64,000 nucleotides of DNA from Haloarcula salina. GTDB lineage: Archaea > Halobacteriota > Halobacteria > Halobacteriales > Haloarculaceae. Positions 50,490 to 55,695 of this stretch are shown one piece after another. The stretch spans positions 124,001 through 188,000 of the forward strand of contig NZ_WRXL01000006.1 in the NCBI RefSeq assembly GCF_010119195.1, given 5' to 3'. The number at the start of each line of letters is the position of its first letter. The first letter of the stretch is position 1. The notes beneath the pieces were generated by a model, which saw nothing but the letters and a program-made list of their open reading frames with translations, made no database searches and was not told where the DNA came from. Position numbers and translations under genes: made by a program.

Positions 50490-50516
50490 CACCCCGGAGC
50501 GTGTACCCGATTGGCA

Positions 50517-51284
50517 ATGACCGACGAACCACGATACGCGGTCGAGGCGACGGAGACGTCGCTCGCCGTCCTCGAAACGCTGGTCGACGCCGAGGGCACG
50601 GTAGGCGTGACGGCGCTGGCCGACCACGTCGGCGTCTCGAAGAGCGTCGCCCACAATCACCTCTCGACGCTCCGGGCGGCCGGCTACGTGATCAAGCGAG
50701 GTGAGCAGTACGACGCGTCGCTCCGAACGCTGACCCTGGGCGAACGGACGCGGGCGGGCATCGACGTCCACGACGCGGCGAAGCGGAAACTGGACAACCT
50801 CGCGGCGGCGACCGGGGAGACGACGACGCTGTTCGTCCTGGAAGAAGACGCCGGCGTCCCGGTGTACGTGGCCGAGGCCGACGACGGCTGGTCGCCCCCC
50901 TTCGTCGAGGGCGAGCGACTCCCGTTGCACGTGAACGCGCCCGGGAAGTCGATACTGTCGTCGCTGTCGGCCGACCGCATCGACGCGATTCTGGAGCGCA
51001 CCGACCTGATCGCGCCGACCGACGCGACGACGACGGATCCCGACGAACTCGTCCGGGAACTCCGGCGGATCCGGGACGACGGCATCGCGTTCTGCAGAGG
51101 AGAACAGTATGAGGGCGTCGTGGGCGTGGCCGCGCCGCTCCCCGAAATCGACGGGAGTCGGATCGCCGCACTGGGCGTCTGTGGCCCCGTCGACCGACTG
51201 AACGGCCGGTACCTCGAAGAGGACATCACCGGGCAGGTGCTCAGCACCACGAAGTCCGTCCAGGTCGACCTCACCGCGGACTGA
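50517..51284 (+). CDS. IclR family transcriptional regulator
   Basis: A 255-residue regulator. The N-terminal winged helix is AVEATETSLAVLETLVDAEGTVGVTALADHVGVSKSVAHNHLSTLRAAGYVIKRG, and the C-terminal effector domain has TTTLFVLEEDAGVPVYVAEAD, LPLHVNAPGKSILSSL, and AFCRGEQYEGVVGVAAPLPEIDGSRIAALGVCGPVDRL. The family senses small organic acids or sugars and binds palindromes of about 15-17 bp. The two 17-bp palindromes just upstream are the obvious target, so autoregulation is likely. It may also control the sugar genes from 38 to 50 kb. The start is the ATG at 50517; a TTG two codons earlier is not needed. Confidence 0.9.
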   Translation: MTDEPRYAVEATETSLAVLETLVDAEGTVGVTALADHVGVSKSVAHNHLSTLRAAGYVIKRGEQYDASLRTLTLGERTRAGIDVHDAAKRKLDNLAAATGETTTLFVLEEDAGVPVYVAEADDGWSPPFVEGERLPLHVNAPGKSILSSLSADRIDAILERTDLIAPTDATTTDPDELVRELRRIRDDGIAFCRGEQYEGVVGVAAPLPEIDGSRIAALGVCGPVDRLNGRYLEEDITGQVLSTTKSVQVDLTAD

Positions 51285-51501
51285 CGTGGCTAACGAACGT
51301 ACCACTGTTACCGGACGACGCGGGTGCGCACTCTACCGCTAACGCCCGTACGACTGTTATTTCCCGGGAACGGCGAGCCCGATACTGTCGCGTGGACAGC
51401 CGTCAATCGAAGAAGAATCTCCAATCGTGCCGGAGTAAAGACTCCGAATGGGGTCACCAGACACATCTGCGATTTTTACACAGATACTTCGCTATTGTAG
51501 T

Positions 51502-51537
51502 CTAGTTAAACACTAGTATCTAAATAATAGGCCTATT
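51502..51537. repeat. Two adjacent short palindromes in an AT-rich island
   Basis: CTAGT/ACTAG with a five-base spacer, then, nine bases later, the perfect 12-bp AATAGGCCTATT. Could be remnant ends of a mobile element or protein-binding sites. Confidence 0.35.
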
Positions 51538-51778
51538 TTCGAGATTTTTGGAAATAGAAATAAGAATACGGAATTGTATAGAGGTCAAGTCGAGACAGGA
51601 TCGGAATTGAGGGCGATTCTATAACCAATTTGTCAACCGGTAGGTCGAAAGAGAGATATCCGCGGTATCGAGGGCGTTTTCCGAGAGCGACCGATTCGGG
51701 CGAGCGAGCGAACCGGCCCCGGATTCCGACGCGGTCGTCCGCGTGAGCGCGTCACACCCGCATCCACGGTCCGAACCG

Positions 51779-51784
51779 CTTAAG
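51779..51784 (+). promoter_or_regulatory. TATA-like element of rpl15e
   Basis: CTTAAG predicts transcription start near 51808, about 100 nt before the rpl15e ATG. That leader contains the three hairpins listed separately. Confidence 0.4.
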
Positions 51785-51837
51785 AGTCCCAGCGGCGAAC
51801 GACGGAGTAACTCGCTGGACGACGGGCACCAGCGGGC

Positions 51838-51903
51838 ACCTGCGTGTGCAGGTCGGGATGTGAGTCGCCGGACGCGACTTGAACCACGCAACGCCCGTGG
51901 TGA
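51838..51903 (+). promoter_or_regulatory. Three tandem hairpins in the rpl15e leader, the last overlapping the ribosome-binding site
   Basis: Hairpin 1: ACCTGC-GTGT-GCAGGT (51838-51853). Hairpin 2: AGTCGC-CGGAC-GCGACT (51863-51879). Hairpin 3: ACCACG, a seven-base loop, CGTGGT (51883-51901). The Shine-Dalgarno-like GGTGA (51899-51903), six bases before the ATG, lies partly inside the right arm of hairpin 3. This is the geometry of an RNA element that could hide the ribosome-binding site. Confidence 0.5.
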
Positions 51904-51909
51904 ACACAC

Positions 51910-52500
51910 ATGGCACGAAGTGCATACTCCTACATTCGAGAGGCCTGGAAGAACCCGGGCGACGGACAGCTCGCAGAACTGCAGTGGCAGCGCCAGCAGG
52001 AATGGCGCGACGAGGGCGCGGTCGAGCGCATCGAGCGCCCGACGCGCCTCGACAAGGCCCGTTCGCAGGGCTACAAGGCGAAACAGGGCGTCGTCGTCGC
52101 TCGCGTCTCCGTCCGCAAGGGCGGCGCGCGCAAACGCCGGCACAAGGCCGGTCGGCGCTCCAAGCGCCAGGGCGTCACGCGCATCACCCGCCGGAAGGAC
52201 ATCCAGCGCGTCGCCGAGGAGCGCGCCTCCCGGACCTTCCCGAACCTCCGCGTCCTCAACAGCTACTCCGTCGGCCAGGACGGTCGCCAGAAGTGGCACG
52301 AGATCATCCTCATCGACCCGGAGCACCCCGCGATCCAGAACGACGACGACCTCAACTGGATCTGCGCCGACAATCAGGCCGACCGCGCCTTCCGCGGTCT
52401 GACCGGTGCCGGCCGCCGCAACCGCGGCCTCGGCACGAAGGGCAAGGGCGCAGAGAAGACCCGCCCGTCGCTGCGCAGTAACGGCGGCAAGGGCAAGTAA
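51910..52500 (+). CDS. rpl15e: 50S ribosomal protein L15e
   Basis: A 196-residue eukaryote/archaea-specific large-subunit protein. It begins MARSAYSYIREAWKNPGD and has the conserved RPTRLDKARSQGYKAKQGVVVARVSVRKGG, RRSKRQGVTRITRRKDIQ and NLRVLNSYSVGQDG segments and a basic, Gly-rich tail. It binds 23S rRNA in the subunit interior. It is preceded by an unusually structured leader. No other ribosomal gene is adjacent. Confidence 0.96.
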   Translation: MARSAYSYIREAWKNPGDGQLAELQWQRQQEWRDEGAVERIERPTRLDKARSQGYKAKQGVVVARVSVRKGGARKRRHKAGRRSKRQGVTRITRRKDIQRVAEERASRTFPNLRVLNSYSVGQDGRQKWHEIILIDPEHPAIQNDDDLNWICADNQADRAFRGLTGAGRRNRGLGTKGKGAEKTRPSLRSNGGKGK

Positions 52501-52638
52501 CGCCGACGCGGCCGTTTCTTCTCTCTCGACGCGTCCAGTCGCGACACGCTCAGTAGTGAGGAGTCGCCAGATGCTGTCGTCTTCAGCGCCTAAATCCAGC
52601 CAATTTTAATGGACGAATGAACTATTGTGTATAAAAAG

Positions 52639-52644
52639 TTTATA
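52639..52644 (+). promoter_or_regulatory. TATA-like element of the small gene at 52670
   Basis: TTTATA, 26-31 bp before the ATG, the canonical spacing for a leaderless haloarchaeal gene. Confidence 0.5.
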
Positions 52645-52669
52645 CGTTTGGGCGTTAAAATACCGTGTA

Positions 52670-52816
52670 ATGAGAAAGCCACAATTCAGACTACTGTTCG
52701 AAGACGTACGGAAATGGCTGGGCAAGAAGGTCCAGCGGTCCACGGGATCCGACGCGACCGGCGTCTCCGGCGACCAGTCCACCGCGAGGCGACTGTTCCC
52801 GCCGGGCGGACTCTGA
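52670..52816 (+). CDS. Small 48-residue protein, unknown function
   Basis: The start is MRKPQFRLLFEDVRKWLGKK and the remainder is a Ser/Thr/Gly/Asp-rich tail ending LFPPGGL. The first 20 residues would form a basic amphipathic helix; the rest looks unstructured. The TATA-like TTTATA at 52639-52644 has exact leaderless spacing to this ATG, which is the best argument that it is expressed. It converges on the blh gene. The start at 52670 is preferred to one 15 codons upstream because that one would precede the predicted transcript. Confidence 0.45.
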   Translation: MRKPQFRLLFEDVRKWLGKKVQRSTGSDATGVSGDQSTARRLFPPGGL

Positions 52817-52932: not shown

Positions 52933-53964
52933 CTACGCCCAGACGCCCTGCTCCCGATCCATCACCGTCACGACAACGACGTGCGGGAGCGTGACGACGG
53001 CGATGAACACCAGGTACAGCGCGACCCAGCCGGGGACGGTCGAGGGGGGGTCTGGAACGAGGACGAACAGGCCGCCGAGCAGCGCGAGCGAGGCGACGGT
53101 CAGGGGGAGCGCGTCGCGGGCGAAGCGGGCGAACGCTCTCGAGAGGTCGCGGTCACCGAGGGCAGCGGCGGCCGCGTCGTCGACGAGCAGGAGGCGGGCG
53201 ACGTGGCGCAGCGAGTGCCACAGGCAGAAGTAGACGCCGACGGCCAGAACCGGCGGGACGACGGCGAAGTACGCGAGCAGGCCCAGCGTCTCGGCGGCGT
53301 CGAGCGCCCACGGACGACGAGACTCGGCGCGGACGTACCCGAGCGCGAGCGTCGCCGCGACGAGCGCGCCGTAGGCGACGGCGAGAGCGGCCCGGGCGTC
53401 CGGCCGGAACGCCCACGCGAGGGCGGCGGCGTCGGCGGCGAACAGCGACACCAGATCGGTGGCGACGCGGCGGTACCACGCGGGGAACGCGAGCAGCGGG
53501 ACCAGCATCGGCAGGCCGCCGCGGACGAGCACGGTCCCGGCCCGCTGGGGGAGCGACCGGAGGTGGTCGGCGTCCGCCAGCGCGACGAGCGCGTACAGGT
53601 CGCCCTGCCCCCAGTGGAACCACGTCACTGCGATGAACAGGGCGAGCGACGCGGCGGGCGCGAGGAACCAGACGACCGCGTAGGCCCCGCCGACGACGGC
53701 GTAGAGCGCGACCACGCGACCGACGGCTCGCAGGTCCGGACGCTCGTCGCGCGTGCGCGCGACGGCGAAGTGGTCGACCGCGCCGTGGGGGAGGCCCAGC
53801 ACGACGACGCTGGCGACCAGCGGGACGTACTGCAGCGTCGGCGGGACCGAAACGCCCGCGAGGAACGGGACGACGAGCGCGGCGCTCGCGGCCCATCCGG
53901 GCGCGAGTGCGACCCGGGCGAGCGTCGCGCGGGCGGCGGCCGTCGCGTCGGTGGTCAGTGCCAT
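52933..53964 (-). CDS. blh: Brp/Blh family beta-carotene 15,15'-dioxygenase
   Basis: A 343-residue polytopic membrane enzyme that cleaves beta-carotene to two retinals, the chromophore of bacteriorhodopsin and its relatives. The four family metal-site motifs are visible: GLPHGAVDH (His60, His65), WFHWGQGD (His117), CLWHSLRHVARL (His250, His254) and TLPHVVVVTVMD near the C terminus. Eight or nine hydrophobic helices surround them. It is the last gene of crtB-crtY-blh and overlaps crtY by 10 bp. Either the brp or the blh paralogue name could apply. Confidence 0.92.
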   Translation of the reverse strand: MALTTDATAAARATLARVALAPGWAASAALVVPFLAGVSVPPTLQYVPLVASVVVLGLPHGAVDHFAVARTRDERPDLRAVGRVVALYAVVGGAYAVVWFLAPAASLALFIAVTWFHWGQGDLYALVALADADHLRSLPQRAGTVLVRGGLPMLVPLLAFPAWYRRVATDLVSLFAADAAALAWAFRPDARAALAVAYGALVAATLALGYVRAESRRPWALDAAETLGLLAYFAVVPPVLAVGVYFCLWHSLRHVARLLLVDDAAAAALGDRDLSRAFARFARDALPLTVASLALLGGLFVLVPDPPSTVPGWVALYLVFIAVVTLPHVVVVTVMDREQGVWA

Positions 53965-54680
53965 CTGTCGAGGAGCCAGACGTACAGGACGACGCCCTGG
54001 ACGACGAACAGCGACGTGCAGAAGAAGAACACCGCTTCCTCGACCGGCAGGCCGATCAGCGGGACGGCGTATCCGGTCGTGTACTGCCCCGAGAGCGTCC
54101 AGATTCCCAGTTCGAGCGCGATGCTATCGATGCCACAGAGGTACGCCGTGGGGACGAGCGTCGCCGCCGCCACGGTCCGCCGCTCGCCGGCGAGGAAGTG
54201 CCAGCCGAAGCCCCACTGGAGGGCGAGTATCGGCGCGCTCCAGGCCAGGAGCGACCCGAGATAGAGCCCGGCGTCGGCCCGCAGGAGCGCGAGACCGACC
54301 GCCGCGACCGCGCCGGCTGCGGCGAGGCCGACCAGCCGCGTCGGAAGCGGCGTGGCGAGCGGCCGGTCGGTGTCCACGCGAAACCGGGCGGTCCACAGCC
54401 CGACGCCGACGGTCTGGAAGACGAAGAAGAGGTACTCGCCGAGCGGAATCGACCAGTACCGAGCCAGCACCGTCCCCTCGCCGTACCACCAGACGCCGCG
54501 GCGGATGAGCGCGCCGTCCCACGGGATCGTATAGATGACGGCCAGTCCGGTCAGGAGCGCAGTCCCCGAGAGGACGGCCCGTCGGCTGCCGAGGCGGTAG
54601 GTCGCCGTCAGCGCCAGCGCCGCGAGTACCGGCGCGACGAACAGGGCGTGAAACTGGAGATACGAGAGCGGCGGCGTCAT
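53955..54680 (-). CDS. crtY: Lycopene beta-cyclase, fused CrtYc-CrtYd type
   Basis: A 241-residue membrane protein with two homologous halves of three helices each, the fused heterodimer-type cyclase that closes the beta-rings on lycopene. Signature residues include IYTIPWDGALIRRGVWWY (residues 49-66), YWSIPLGEYLFF (75-86) and, in the second half, GLPVEEAVFFF. It supplies beta-carotene to the Blh enzyme encoded next. It follows crtB after 43 bp. Confidence 0.9.
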   Translation of the reverse strand: MTPPLSYLQFHALFVAPVLAALALTATYRLGSRRAVLSGTALLTGLAVIYTIPWDGALIRRGVWWYGEGTVLARYWSIPLGEYLFFVFQTVGVGLWTARFRVDTDRPLATPLPTRLVGLAAAGAVAAVGLALLRADAGLYLGSLLAWSAPILALQWGFGWHFLAGERRTVAAATLVPTAYLCGIDSIALELGIWTLSGQYTTGYAVPLIGLPVEEAVFFFCTSLFVVQGVVLYVWLLDRWH

Positions 54681-54723
54681 CGTCGCGAGACGGGGCGGAG
54701 CGCTGTCCTGCTCGCGGACCGTG

Positions 54724-55695
54724 TCATCCGCGCCACGTCGGCTGGCCGTGGCCGTGGACTTCAGTCGGTCGCTCGCCGGGCCCGCGCTCGGAGACGGCGC
54801 TCACCGTGTAGAACGTCGCCTCCGGGTCACCGTTGCGCCGCCAGTGCCACCAGGTTCGGGCGAGCAGCCAGAGGCGGCGTCGACGGCTGAGCTCCGGCGT
54901 CTCGGTCAGCACGTCGTAGCCGCGGTCGCGGATGAGCCGGTGGTGTTCGGCGTACAGGACCGCCGCGAGCAGGACGCCGAACTGGCAGTCCTCCGGGAGG
55001 TATCGGATGCCGGCGACGCCCTCGCGGTACAGCTCTTCCGTGCGGGCCAGTTCCTCCTGCATCACCGCGCGGAACCCCTCGTCCAGCTCGGCGTCGGCCA
55101 GTTGCGCCTCGGTGACGCCGTGCTGGGAGAGCGTCTCCTGCGGGAGGTACACCCGGCCGTAGTCGTGGATGTCCTCGCGCACGTCGCGCAGGAAGTTCGA
55201 GAGTTGGAACGCCTCGGCCAGCGCCTCCGCGTGGGGCAGGGCCGCCTCCTTCTGGGGCGGGTCCATCACCTCGGTCATCATCGACCCGACGGCGACGGCC
55301 GACCCGGCCATGTACCCCCTGAGGTCCTCGAAGGTCTCGTAGCGGGCCTGCGCGATGTCCATCTCCATCGCGTCGATGAAGACGTTGATGGTGTCCTCGG
55401 AGATGTCGTGGCGCTCAGCGAGGTCCTGGAACGCCGCCATGACGGCCTCGTGGTCGGTGTCGGCGGGGTCGACGTTCCCGAGCGCGGCCTCGCGGATCAC
55501 TTCCAGTTGCTCGTGTTGAACCGTCGGCGGCGGCCCGTCCGTCCGGTCGACGACCTCGTCGGCCACCCGGAAGAAGGCGTACATGACGTACGTCGGGTGG
55601 CGGATCCGTTCCGGGAGCAGGCGGGTCGCGAGGTGGAACGTCCGTCCGGTCTCCTGCTGAATCGATTTGCTGGTCTGGATGTTGTCAGAGTGCAT
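54724..55695 (-). CDS. crtB: Phytoene synthase
   Basis: A 323-residue isoprenoid synthase that joins two geranylgeranyl diphosphates to phytoene. The two Asp-rich magnesium motifs are VADEVVD (Asp46, Asp50) and LRDVREDIHDYGRVYLP (Asp171, Asp175). RTFHLATRLLPERIR and YAFFRVADEV form the family N-terminal pattern. It is the first gene of the operon crtB-crtY-blh. The Bat-type gene lies 270 bp upstream on the same strand. The gap has no clear TATA at leaderless distance, so a longer leader or activator-dependent promoter is likely. Confidence 0.94.
   Translation of the reverse strand: MHSDNIQTSKSIQQETGRTFHLATRLLPERIRHPTYVMYAFFRVADEVVDRTDGPPPTVQHEQLEVIREAALGNVDPADTDHEAVMAAFQDLAERHDISEDTINVFIDAMEMDIAQARYETFEDLRGYMAGSAVAVGSMMTEVMDPPQKEAALPHAEALAEAFQLSNFLRDVREDIHDYGRVYLPQETLSQHGVTEAQLADAELDEGFRAVMQEELARTEELYREGVAGIRYLPEDCQFGVLLAAVLYAEHHRLIRDRGYDVLTETPELSRRRRLWLLARTWWHWRRNGDPEATFYTVSAVSERGPGERPTEVHGHGQPTWRG

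What the first reader, a model, noticed from the sequence alone, without database searches (positions are those of the whole stretch)
51808..51909. Hairpin-rich leader that may control L15e synthesis
About 100 nt of predicted leader before rpl15e contain three perfect consecutive hairpins with short loops. The ribosome-binding GGTGA overlaps the right arm of the third hairpin, so its folding would hide the start site. Many haloarchaeal genes are leaderless, so a long structured leader on a ribosomal-protein gene stands out. It could be an autoregulatory site bound by L15e or an RNA thermometer-like or ligand-sensitive element.
Basis: partly seen in the sequence, partly recalled or inferred. 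Interest (0 to 1): 0.55.

Follow-up and report, generated by a model that had tools for sequence, protein, structure and literature searches.

The report
Pseudoknotted leader controlling ribosomal protein eL15
The start of the messenger RNA for ribosomal protein eL15 in salt-loving archaea folds into a conserved structure, partly known already, that also contains a knot-like fold ending right beside the translation start signal, which suggests how the cell may switch off this protein when it has enough of it.

Summary
The hairpins are present, and 51839-51890 matches a known Rfam family, RF03144 (eL15-Euryarchaeota ribosomal protein leader; 40.1 bits, cut-off 33.7). An eL15 autoregulatory leader is thus the right kind of answer, already proposed in print (Eckert & Weinberg 2020). 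The details change. Folding energy is ordinary (z -0.54), and the Shine-Dalgarno-covering hairpin (51883-888/896-901) lacks covariation support. Instead 51893-898 pairs with the loop of the first hairpin (51822-827), an H-type pseudoknot that encloses the core and ends directly before GGTGA. Of 200 distinct haloarchaeal leaders, 179 form 6 of 6 pseudoknot pairs and the rest 4 or 5. Pair 51822-51898 is one of 4 of 2628 column pairs that beat every tree-based null simulation, with 12 inferred double changes. Hairpin 1 and the pseudoknot lie outside the 48-nt Rfam model; the pseudoknot's 3' strand was absent in 24 of 24 non-haloarchaeal members read. A second GGGC could compete for the same partner, so a two-state switch is possible. 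eL15 binding, repression and the transcription start are inferred.

The parts
51770..51784 (+). Promoter-like BRE (TCCGAAC, 51770-776) and TATA-like box (TTAAG, 51780-784); predicts a start at about 51808-51811
   Evidence: Column frequencies over 189 of 190 leaders: CGAAA-like at -41..-37 and TTWA-like around -33..-29 relative to hairpin P1; TTWA found at -34..-30 in 129 of 189. The start is inferred from the usual TATA-to-start distance (recalled), not mapped.
51808..51812 (+). Conserved YAACT just before P1, likely the 5' end of the mRNA
   Evidence: A 85%, A 89%, C 98%, T 92% at -4..-1; the parser gave half a point for a T there, so these figures lean slightly upward
51813..51834 (+). Hairpin P1 (51813-818 with 51829-834), stem 1 of the H-type pseudoknot; outside the Rfam model
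   Evidence: Each of 6 pairs forms in 184-190 of 190 leaders (the 5' arm was chosen for best pairing); 9 inferred double changes at 51816-51831
51822..51827 (+). ACGGGC, loop of P1 = 5' strand of the pseudoknot helix
   Evidence: Pairs with 51893-898; of 200 distinct leaders 179 form 6 of 6 pairs, 16 form 5, 5 form 4
51832..51837 (+). Second GCGGGC copy, possible competing partner of 51893-898 (nested helix P0)
   Evidence: RNAalifold picks 51834-837/893-896; hardly varies, no covariation at 32-98 or 36-94; one compensating case, L268
51838..51853 (+). Hairpin P2 of the RF03144 core
   Evidence: Rfam match; 5 inferred double changes at 51841-51850
51839..51890 (+). Match to RF03144, the presumed eL15-binding core (P2, short helix P4 51855-856/884-885, internal loop 51857-861/881-883, hairpin P3)
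   Evidence: 40.1 bits, gathering 33.7, E 1.1e-5
51862..51880 (+). Hairpin P3 of the RF03144 core
   Evidence: Pairs 63-79, 64-78, 65-77 beat all 300 null simulations
51893..51898 (+). GCCCGT, 3' strand of the pseudoknot helix, directly before the Shine-Dalgarno sequence
   Evidence: Covaries with 51822-827
51899..51903 (+). GGTGA, Shine-Dalgarno-like sequence
   Evidence: GGTGA lies between the pseudoknot and the start codon in 153 of 200 distinct leaders, not in the other 47
51910..52500 (+). rpl15e, ribosomal protein eL15
   Evidence: phmmer best match: 50S ribosomal protein L15e chain 3cc2_M, E 1.3e-120

Best explanation
The region is the 5' leader of the eL15 mRNA and acts as a ribosomal-protein leader. 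A core of two hairpins (P2, P3) and a conserved internal loop, the known RF03144 motif, is the presumed landing site for eL15 itself. In haloarchaea this core lies inside the long third loop of an H-type pseudoknot: stem 1 is hairpin P1 (51813-818/829-834) and stem 2 pairs the P1 loop (51822-827) with 51893-898. Stem 2 ends directly before the Shine-Dalgarno GGTGA, with 11 nt between it and the start codon. When eL15 is in excess it binds the core, holds the pseudoknot closed and keeps the small ribosomal subunit off the start site; when rRNA absorbs eL15 the pseudoknot opens and translation resumes. Shown here: the conserved sequence, the covarying helices including the pseudoknot, their position at the start site, and the promoter-like sequence. 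Inferred: the transcription start, eL15 binding, the direction of control and the blocking step.
For: RF03144 match above cut-off, the only one above cut-off in the genome. Of 236 haloarchaeal eL15 loci 235 parsed with P1, both pseudoknot strands and core, 1 dropped for a run of C; of 12 order-level genomes without an RF03144 hit, 11 carry it and 1 does not. Pair 51822-51898 is one of 4 of 2628 pairs beating all 300 tree-based simulations, with 12 inferred double changes that keep the pair, 2 single ones that keep it and 5 that break it. Pair 51826-51894 is G-C 184, A-U 4, G-U 2 of 190, never A-C, and all 24 loci read from the genus of L252, L253 and L256 have A-U there (two of the 24 are the same places as L252 and L256). 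Spacing fits an H-type pseudoknot: loop 1 of 1-5 nt, loop 2 of 0-3 nt. Pseudoknot to start codon 6-13 nt in 200 of 200. Whole structure on alignment A1: covariation score 0.385 against 0.151 +/- 0.009 in shuffles and at most 0.081 when the partners are slid. In Halobacterium salinarum rpl15e mRNA more than doubled but protein fell below one third at low salt, and the chaperone SmAP1 binds its 5' portion (PMC9786353), which fits control after transcription.
Against: No binding, probing or reporter data. Folding energy is not unusual, and the nested minimum-energy fold (-45.1 kcal/mol) is a different one. The parser searched for CGG(G/A)-like and (C/T)CCG-like words, so the near-complete pairing of the four middle pseudoknot pairs is partly built in; the weight rests on pairs 22-98 and 26-94 and on the fact that 1 of 236 loci failed to parse. 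Pair 26-94 varies in few lineages and is not significant in the tree test (rank 38). The pseudoknot is incomplete in 21 of 200 leaders. A nested helix with the second GGGC fits the same bases nearly as well, if without covariation. 47 of 200 leaders have no GGTGA after the pseudoknot, so hiding that sequence cannot be the general mechanism. No contiguous likeness to the genome's own 23S rRNA: longest shared word 8, while 497 of 500 shuffled leaders reach 8 or more. The salt data combine two separate studies, and their authors explain them by an internal hairpin and ribosome stalling.
Confidence: 0.7

Rival explanations
1. Two-state switch: two copies of GCGGGC-like sequence (51822-827 in the P1 loop, 51832-837 after it) compete for the one GCCCGT (51893-898). 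The pseudoknot leaves the Shine-Dalgarno sequence unpaired; the nested helix P0 closes the eL15-binding core and, through CACCA/TGGTG, can also pair the Shine-Dalgarno sequence. eL15 binding favours P0 and switches translation off.
For: Both pairings fit nearly every leader; RNAalifold picks the nested helix; 51835-837 is GGC in 199 of 200 leaders though unpaired in the pseudoknot state; L268 changes the second copy and the partner together, GCGAGC/GCTCGC; nested energy of P0 with the core, -36.6, is close to P1 with the core (-29.3) plus the pseudoknot helix (duplex -10.0, loop cost not computed).
Against: Only one compensating case; pair 32-98 ranks 293 of 2628 and 36-94 scores nothing, with 0 double changes at 32-98; in sequences with T at 94 position 36 stays G in 6 of 6 and the second copy stays GCGGGC in all 24 loci read of the genus of L252. 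The parser required GGC (or AGC) at 35-37, and invariance may reflect protein contact.
Confidence: 0.25
2. One reading: consecutive hairpins, the last (51883-888/896-901) hiding the Shine-Dalgarno sequence, opened or closed by eL15, heat or a ligand.
For: The hairpin is perfect in the window, and P1+P2+P3 with it evaluates to -35.5 kcal/mol.
Against: 72.8% paired against 72.3% in shuffles; all six pairs formed in 37 of 95 leaders; key pair ranks 2584 of 2628, 1 double change against 11 breaking ones.
Confidence: 0.05
3. The conserved leader acts chiefly through salt- or SmAP1-dependent processing of the mRNA rather than through eL15 binding.
For: Discordant mRNA and protein change at low salt, SmAP1 binding to the 5' portion and a processing site inside the rpl15e transcript in H. 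salinarum (PMC9786353).
Against: The RF03144 core is not confined to halophiles: Methanosarcina acetivorans is among the control genomes that ring, and an eL15-like frame follows the core in 24 of 24 non-haloarchaeal loci. Some regulation may use both.
Confidence: 0.1
4. No RNA function: conservation reflects promoter or DNA-level constraint.
For: The region includes a conserved promoter-like sequence.
Against: Compensatory changes in P1, P2, P3, P4 and the pseudoknot.
Confidence: 0.02

Closest known systems
RF03144, eL15-Euryarchaeota ribosomal protein leader (Eckert & Weinberg 2020, PMC7247131)
   Same: Same core (P2, P3, internal loop), same gene, match above the gathering score
   Different: The Rfam model has 48 positions and matches only 51839-51890; hairpin P1, the pseudoknot and the link to the Shine-Dalgarno sequence are outside it. 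The main text has no occurrence of 'Shine-Dalgarno' and the eL15 passages read do not describe such parts; its figures and supplement were not available, so they may be noted there.
Non-haloarchaeal members of RF03144 (Methanosarcina acetivorans among the named controls)
   Same: Same core before an eL15-like frame (24 of 24 loci read)
   Different: 0 of these 24 loci, taken from the 30 best-scoring matches, have the pseudoknot's 3' strand; 13 of 24 have GUUUCA...UGAAAC around the core instead, a possible closing helix
E. coli S15 (rpsO) leader, a pseudoknot at the ribosome-binding site controlled by its own protein (recalled, no call)
   Same: Would work alike: a ribosomal protein stabilises a pseudoknot next to its own start site
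   Different: Unrelated protein, sequence and fold; not a family member; not compared here

Membership tests
RF03144 eL15 ribosomal protein leader | Covariance-model score above the gathering cut-off | tested here: met
   40.1 against 33.7 bits
RF03144 eL15 ribosomal protein leader | Lies directly before the eL15 gene | tested here: met
   eL15 starts at 51910, with 19 bases between it and the end of the match
RF03144 eL15 ribosomal protein leader | Covarying stems P2 and P3 with conserved internal-loop bases | tested here: met
   AUGU and GAA show no changes on the tree, though the parser required them; no locus failed on that account
RF03144 eL15 ribosomal protein leader | Transcribed as part of the eL15 mRNA | tested here: inconclusive
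   Promoter-like sequence in the right place; Eckert & Weinberg state that start-site data agree with their predictions, supplement not seen
RF03144 eL15 ribosomal protein leader | Binds eL15 and lowers its own expression | not testable with these tools
   No experiment on a member reported in the passages read
RF03144 eL15 ribosomal protein leader | Mimics the eL15 site on 23S rRNA (proposed by the authors, called unclear) | tested here: inconclusive
   No contiguous sequence likeness; structural likeness not testable
H-type pseudoknot | Loop of a hairpin pairs with a downstream single strand, with covariation | tested here: met
   physical formation not probed
RNA thermometer or riboswitch | Match to a described thermometer or riboswitch family | tested here: not met
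   No such match at E <= 5 in 51200-52700

The most novel reading that the evidence does not exclude
Haloarchaea have built a true two-state translational switch around an old eL15-binding core: two GCGGGC-like strands compete for one GCCCGY next to the start site, one as a pseudoknot (start site free) and one as a closing helix (start site hidden), with eL15, and possibly salt, choosing between them, while other lineages close the same core in another way.
Probability: 0.22. Interest if true: 0.65.

Novelty: new variant of a known kind. Interest (0 to 1): 0.45.

Why it matters
Few cis-acting RNA regulators are known in archaea, and most mRNAs of the one haloarchaeon whose starts I could look up lack a leader (72% leaderless in Haloferax volcanii, PMC4983044). 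A pseudoknot conserved before eL15 in nearly all haloarchaeal loci read, in a group with genetically tractable species, gives a concrete set of base pairs, two of them mutually exclusive, with which to test how an archaeal ribosomal protein could control its own translation. It also suggests that the same protein-binding core has been given different outer structures in different lineages.

Tried and rejected
Folding energy as evidence: not significant. Shine-Dalgarno-covering hairpin 51883-888/896-901: rejected on covariation. Simple 23S rRNA mimicry by shared words: longest 8, while 497 of 500 shuffled leaders reach 8 or more. More copies in the genome: one hit above cut-off; the other four are at 15.2-18.2 bits, E 1.6-9.1. 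Alignment A1 by MAFFT shifts the P1 loop in rows such as L050 and L052-L056, so its pseudoknot counts (84.4% paired) are too low; the slot alignment was used instead. First parses were faulty (unoriented minus-strand loci; a start-codon pattern that lost loci) and were redone.

Limits of the counts. The parser searched for fixed words (ATGTG and YGAAYC of the core, GGC after P1, (C/T)GG(G/A) in the loop, (G/C)(C/T)CCG after the core, loosened to allow T at the third place) and chose the 5' arm of P1 by best pairing, with half a point for a T before it; so full conservation at those places, and some pairing in P1, is partly built in. Only L110 (run of C) of 236 failed. Parsimony charged a double change 1.5 against 2 for two single ones, which leans slightly towards double changes. 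The null is a home-made imitation of R-scape, not R-scape, with one tree and 300 simulations; pairs 57-63 and 57-79, not in the structure, score as high there as the best P1 pair.

Which loci. L001-L030 and 95 of the regions come from 125 of the 141 family genomes with eL15 (16 not fetched); L031-L110 are the best 80 of 128 found by protein, many of them the same genomes; the other 25 regions and six of L111-L140 were picked by an RF03144 hit, a choice that favours the element; the 12 were picked for lacking one. Rows dropped: L110, L273 (no element, counted as a miss), L285 (not read); one of 190 leaders was too short upstream. A1 holds 48 sequences: the window and the 47 named loci of the distinct set with leaders of at most 112 nt.

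Full report
What was checked. The window holds rpl15e at 51910-52500; its product matches solved haloarchaeal ribosomal protein L15e (3cc2_M, E 1.3e-120). Folding energy is ordinary (z -0.54; 53 of 200 shuffles as good), so energy alone would not have justified the finding.

What it is. In 51200-52700 Rfam gives one match above its cut-off: RF03144, eL15-Euryarchaeota ribosomal protein leader, at 51839-51890, 40.1 bits against 33.7. It is the only match above cut-off in the whole genome. In a sample of 392 genomes of the phylum 204 had a match at E <= 0.001, and 189 had one above cut-off. The family comes from Eckert and Weinberg 2020 (PMC7247131; abstract, passages and sections 5 and 6 read), who proposed that it binds eL15, saw some likeness to a bulged-G module in the rRNA site and called the mimicry unclear. 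Rfam 15 lists RF03144 with 3 additional covarying base pairs (PMC11701678, one passage read).

What the family model leaves out. Leaders from 236 haloarchaeal eL15 loci were examined (L001-L110, six of L111-L140, L141-L260; some are the same genome under two handles); 235 could be parsed, giving 190 distinct elements. They have a 5' hairpin, P1, with a loop carrying N(C/T)GG(G/A)N, and G(C/T)CCGN after the core; the parser looked for such words, so only the outer and variable positions are free evidence. Pairs formed between loop and 3' strand, of 190: 51822-898 173, 823-897 190, 824-896 190, 825-895 190, 826-894 190, 827-893 182. The variable pairs move together: 22-98 is A-U 102, G-C 64, U-G 5, G-U 2 and unpaired in 17; 26-94 is G-C 184, A-U 4, G-U 2, never A-C.

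Test against shared ancestry. A tree was built from the eL15 coding sequences of the 190, independent of the leader. In 300 simulations each leader column was evolved alone on that tree with its own number of changes. Four of 2628 column pairs scored above every simulated pair: three in hairpin P3, and 51822-51898 of the pseudoknot. Next came P4 (56-84), P2 (41-50) and P1 (16-31), with expected chance counts of 0.19 to 0.36 per alignment; two pairs outside the structure (57-63 and 57-79, 0.36) stand among them, so these are suggestive singly. Pair 26-94 varies too little to reach significance by this test (rank 38), but two double changes were inferred there. Parsimony gives 12 double changes at 22-98 that keep the pair, 2 single changes that keep it and 5 that break it.

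Genomes without an Rfam hit. For 12 order-level genomes that gave no RF03144 match, eL15 was found in 12 of 12; 11 carry the whole element, mostly with a diverged core, and 1 (L273, eL15 matching the query at 66% identity) does not. With these the set is 200 distinct elements: 6 of 6 pseudoknot pairs in 179, 5 in 16, 4 in 5. In the genus of L252, L253 and L256, 24 of 25 loci could be read (two of them the same places as before), and all 24 have GCGGAC/GTCCGC or ACGGAC/GTCCGT, so both variable pairs keep their partner.

Geometry. The helices have the spacing of an H-type pseudoknot: stem 1 of 6 bp, loop 1 of 1-5 nt (3 in 126 of 200), stem 2 of 6 bp, loop 2 of 0-3 nt (1 in 152 of 200), and a long loop 3 that holds the RF03144 core. 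Between stem 2 and the start codon lie 6-13 nt in 200 of 200, and GGTGA is in that gap in 153 of 200. In the window stem 2 ends at 51898 and GGTGA starts at 51899. A BRE/TATA-like promoter (TTWA at -34 to -30 in 129 of 189 leaders) places the mRNA start 2-5 nt before P1 (start distance recalled), so nearly the whole leader would be this structure.

The rejected hairpin.

The open alternative. A second GCGGGC (51832-837) could pair with the same 3' strand as a nested helix closing the core; RNAalifold, which cannot draw pseudoknots, picks its inner four pairs. It fits most leaders but without covariation: 32-98 ranks 293 with 0 double changes, and 36 stays G in 6 of 6 sequences with T at 94. 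One locus, L268, changes this copy and the partner together (GCGAGC/GCTCGC); 7 other loci of its genus (L262, L274-L279) have the usual letters. The near invariance of GGC there (199 of 200) needs an explanation, either this pairing or protein contact. The two pairings exclude each other, so a switch is possible and is given as the most novel reading.

Other members. Of the 30 best-scoring RF03144 loci, 24 are non-haloarchaeal. In 24 of 24 an eL15-like frame follows the core; none has the pseudoknot's 3' strand, and 13 have GUUUCA before and UGAAAC after the core, complementary but invariant, so not proven as a helix. Whether they have a hairpin like P1 was not tested. The outer part thus seems to differ between lineages around a shared core.

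Function. An experimental hint comes from Halobacterium salinarum (PMC9786353; passages, section 4.4 and figure legends read): at low salt rpl15e mRNA more than doubled while the protein fell below one third, SmAP1 binds the 5' portion and a processing site lies in the transcript. The authors suggest salt-dependent structures and ribosome stalling. Two papers on haloarchaeal transcript ends were looked at in passages only and do not name L15 in the main text (PMC8303175, PMC4983044). No paper was found with eL15, r-leader and pseudoknot together, none with L15e, leader, archaea and autoregulation, one with RF03144 (the Rfam paper), and the seven listed for haloarchaea, ribosomal protein, leader and pseudoknot are on other subjects by title (listing only). 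These searches cover open-licence papers only, and supplements could not be read, so the pseudoknot may already be noted in Eckert and Weinberg's figures or supplement.

Verdict. The mechanism (eL15 closes the pseudoknot and blocks the start) is inference.

Noticed in passing
52670-52816 (+): A 48-aa reading frame just after rpl15e (MRKPQF...), behind an AT-rich stretch, has relatives of 58-66% identity in the loci of two other genomes (L002; L006 and L032 are the same place), where it also lies downstream of rpl15e. Possibly a small conserved gene.
   Followed up: partly
52933-55695 (-): Three reading frames that look, from recall only, like a Brp/Blh-type enzyme, a lycopene cyclase and a phytoene synthase: a carotenoid/retinal cluster (translations; no family search made).
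   Followed up: no
50511-51284 (+): A reading frame that looks, from recall only, like an IclR-type regulator, before the AT-rich gap upstream of rpl15e.
   Followed up: no
L273: A genome of the same order (G277, eL15 matching the query at 66% identity) shows no trace of the leader before eL15: an apparent loss or an early branch.
   Followed up: partly
L261 (23S rRNA locus), 2746-2764 of the reverse strand: This locus has GCCCGT...GCGGGCA within one short stretch, the same pair of words as the leader's competing strands; perhaps chance, not placed relative to the eL15 site.
   Followed up: no
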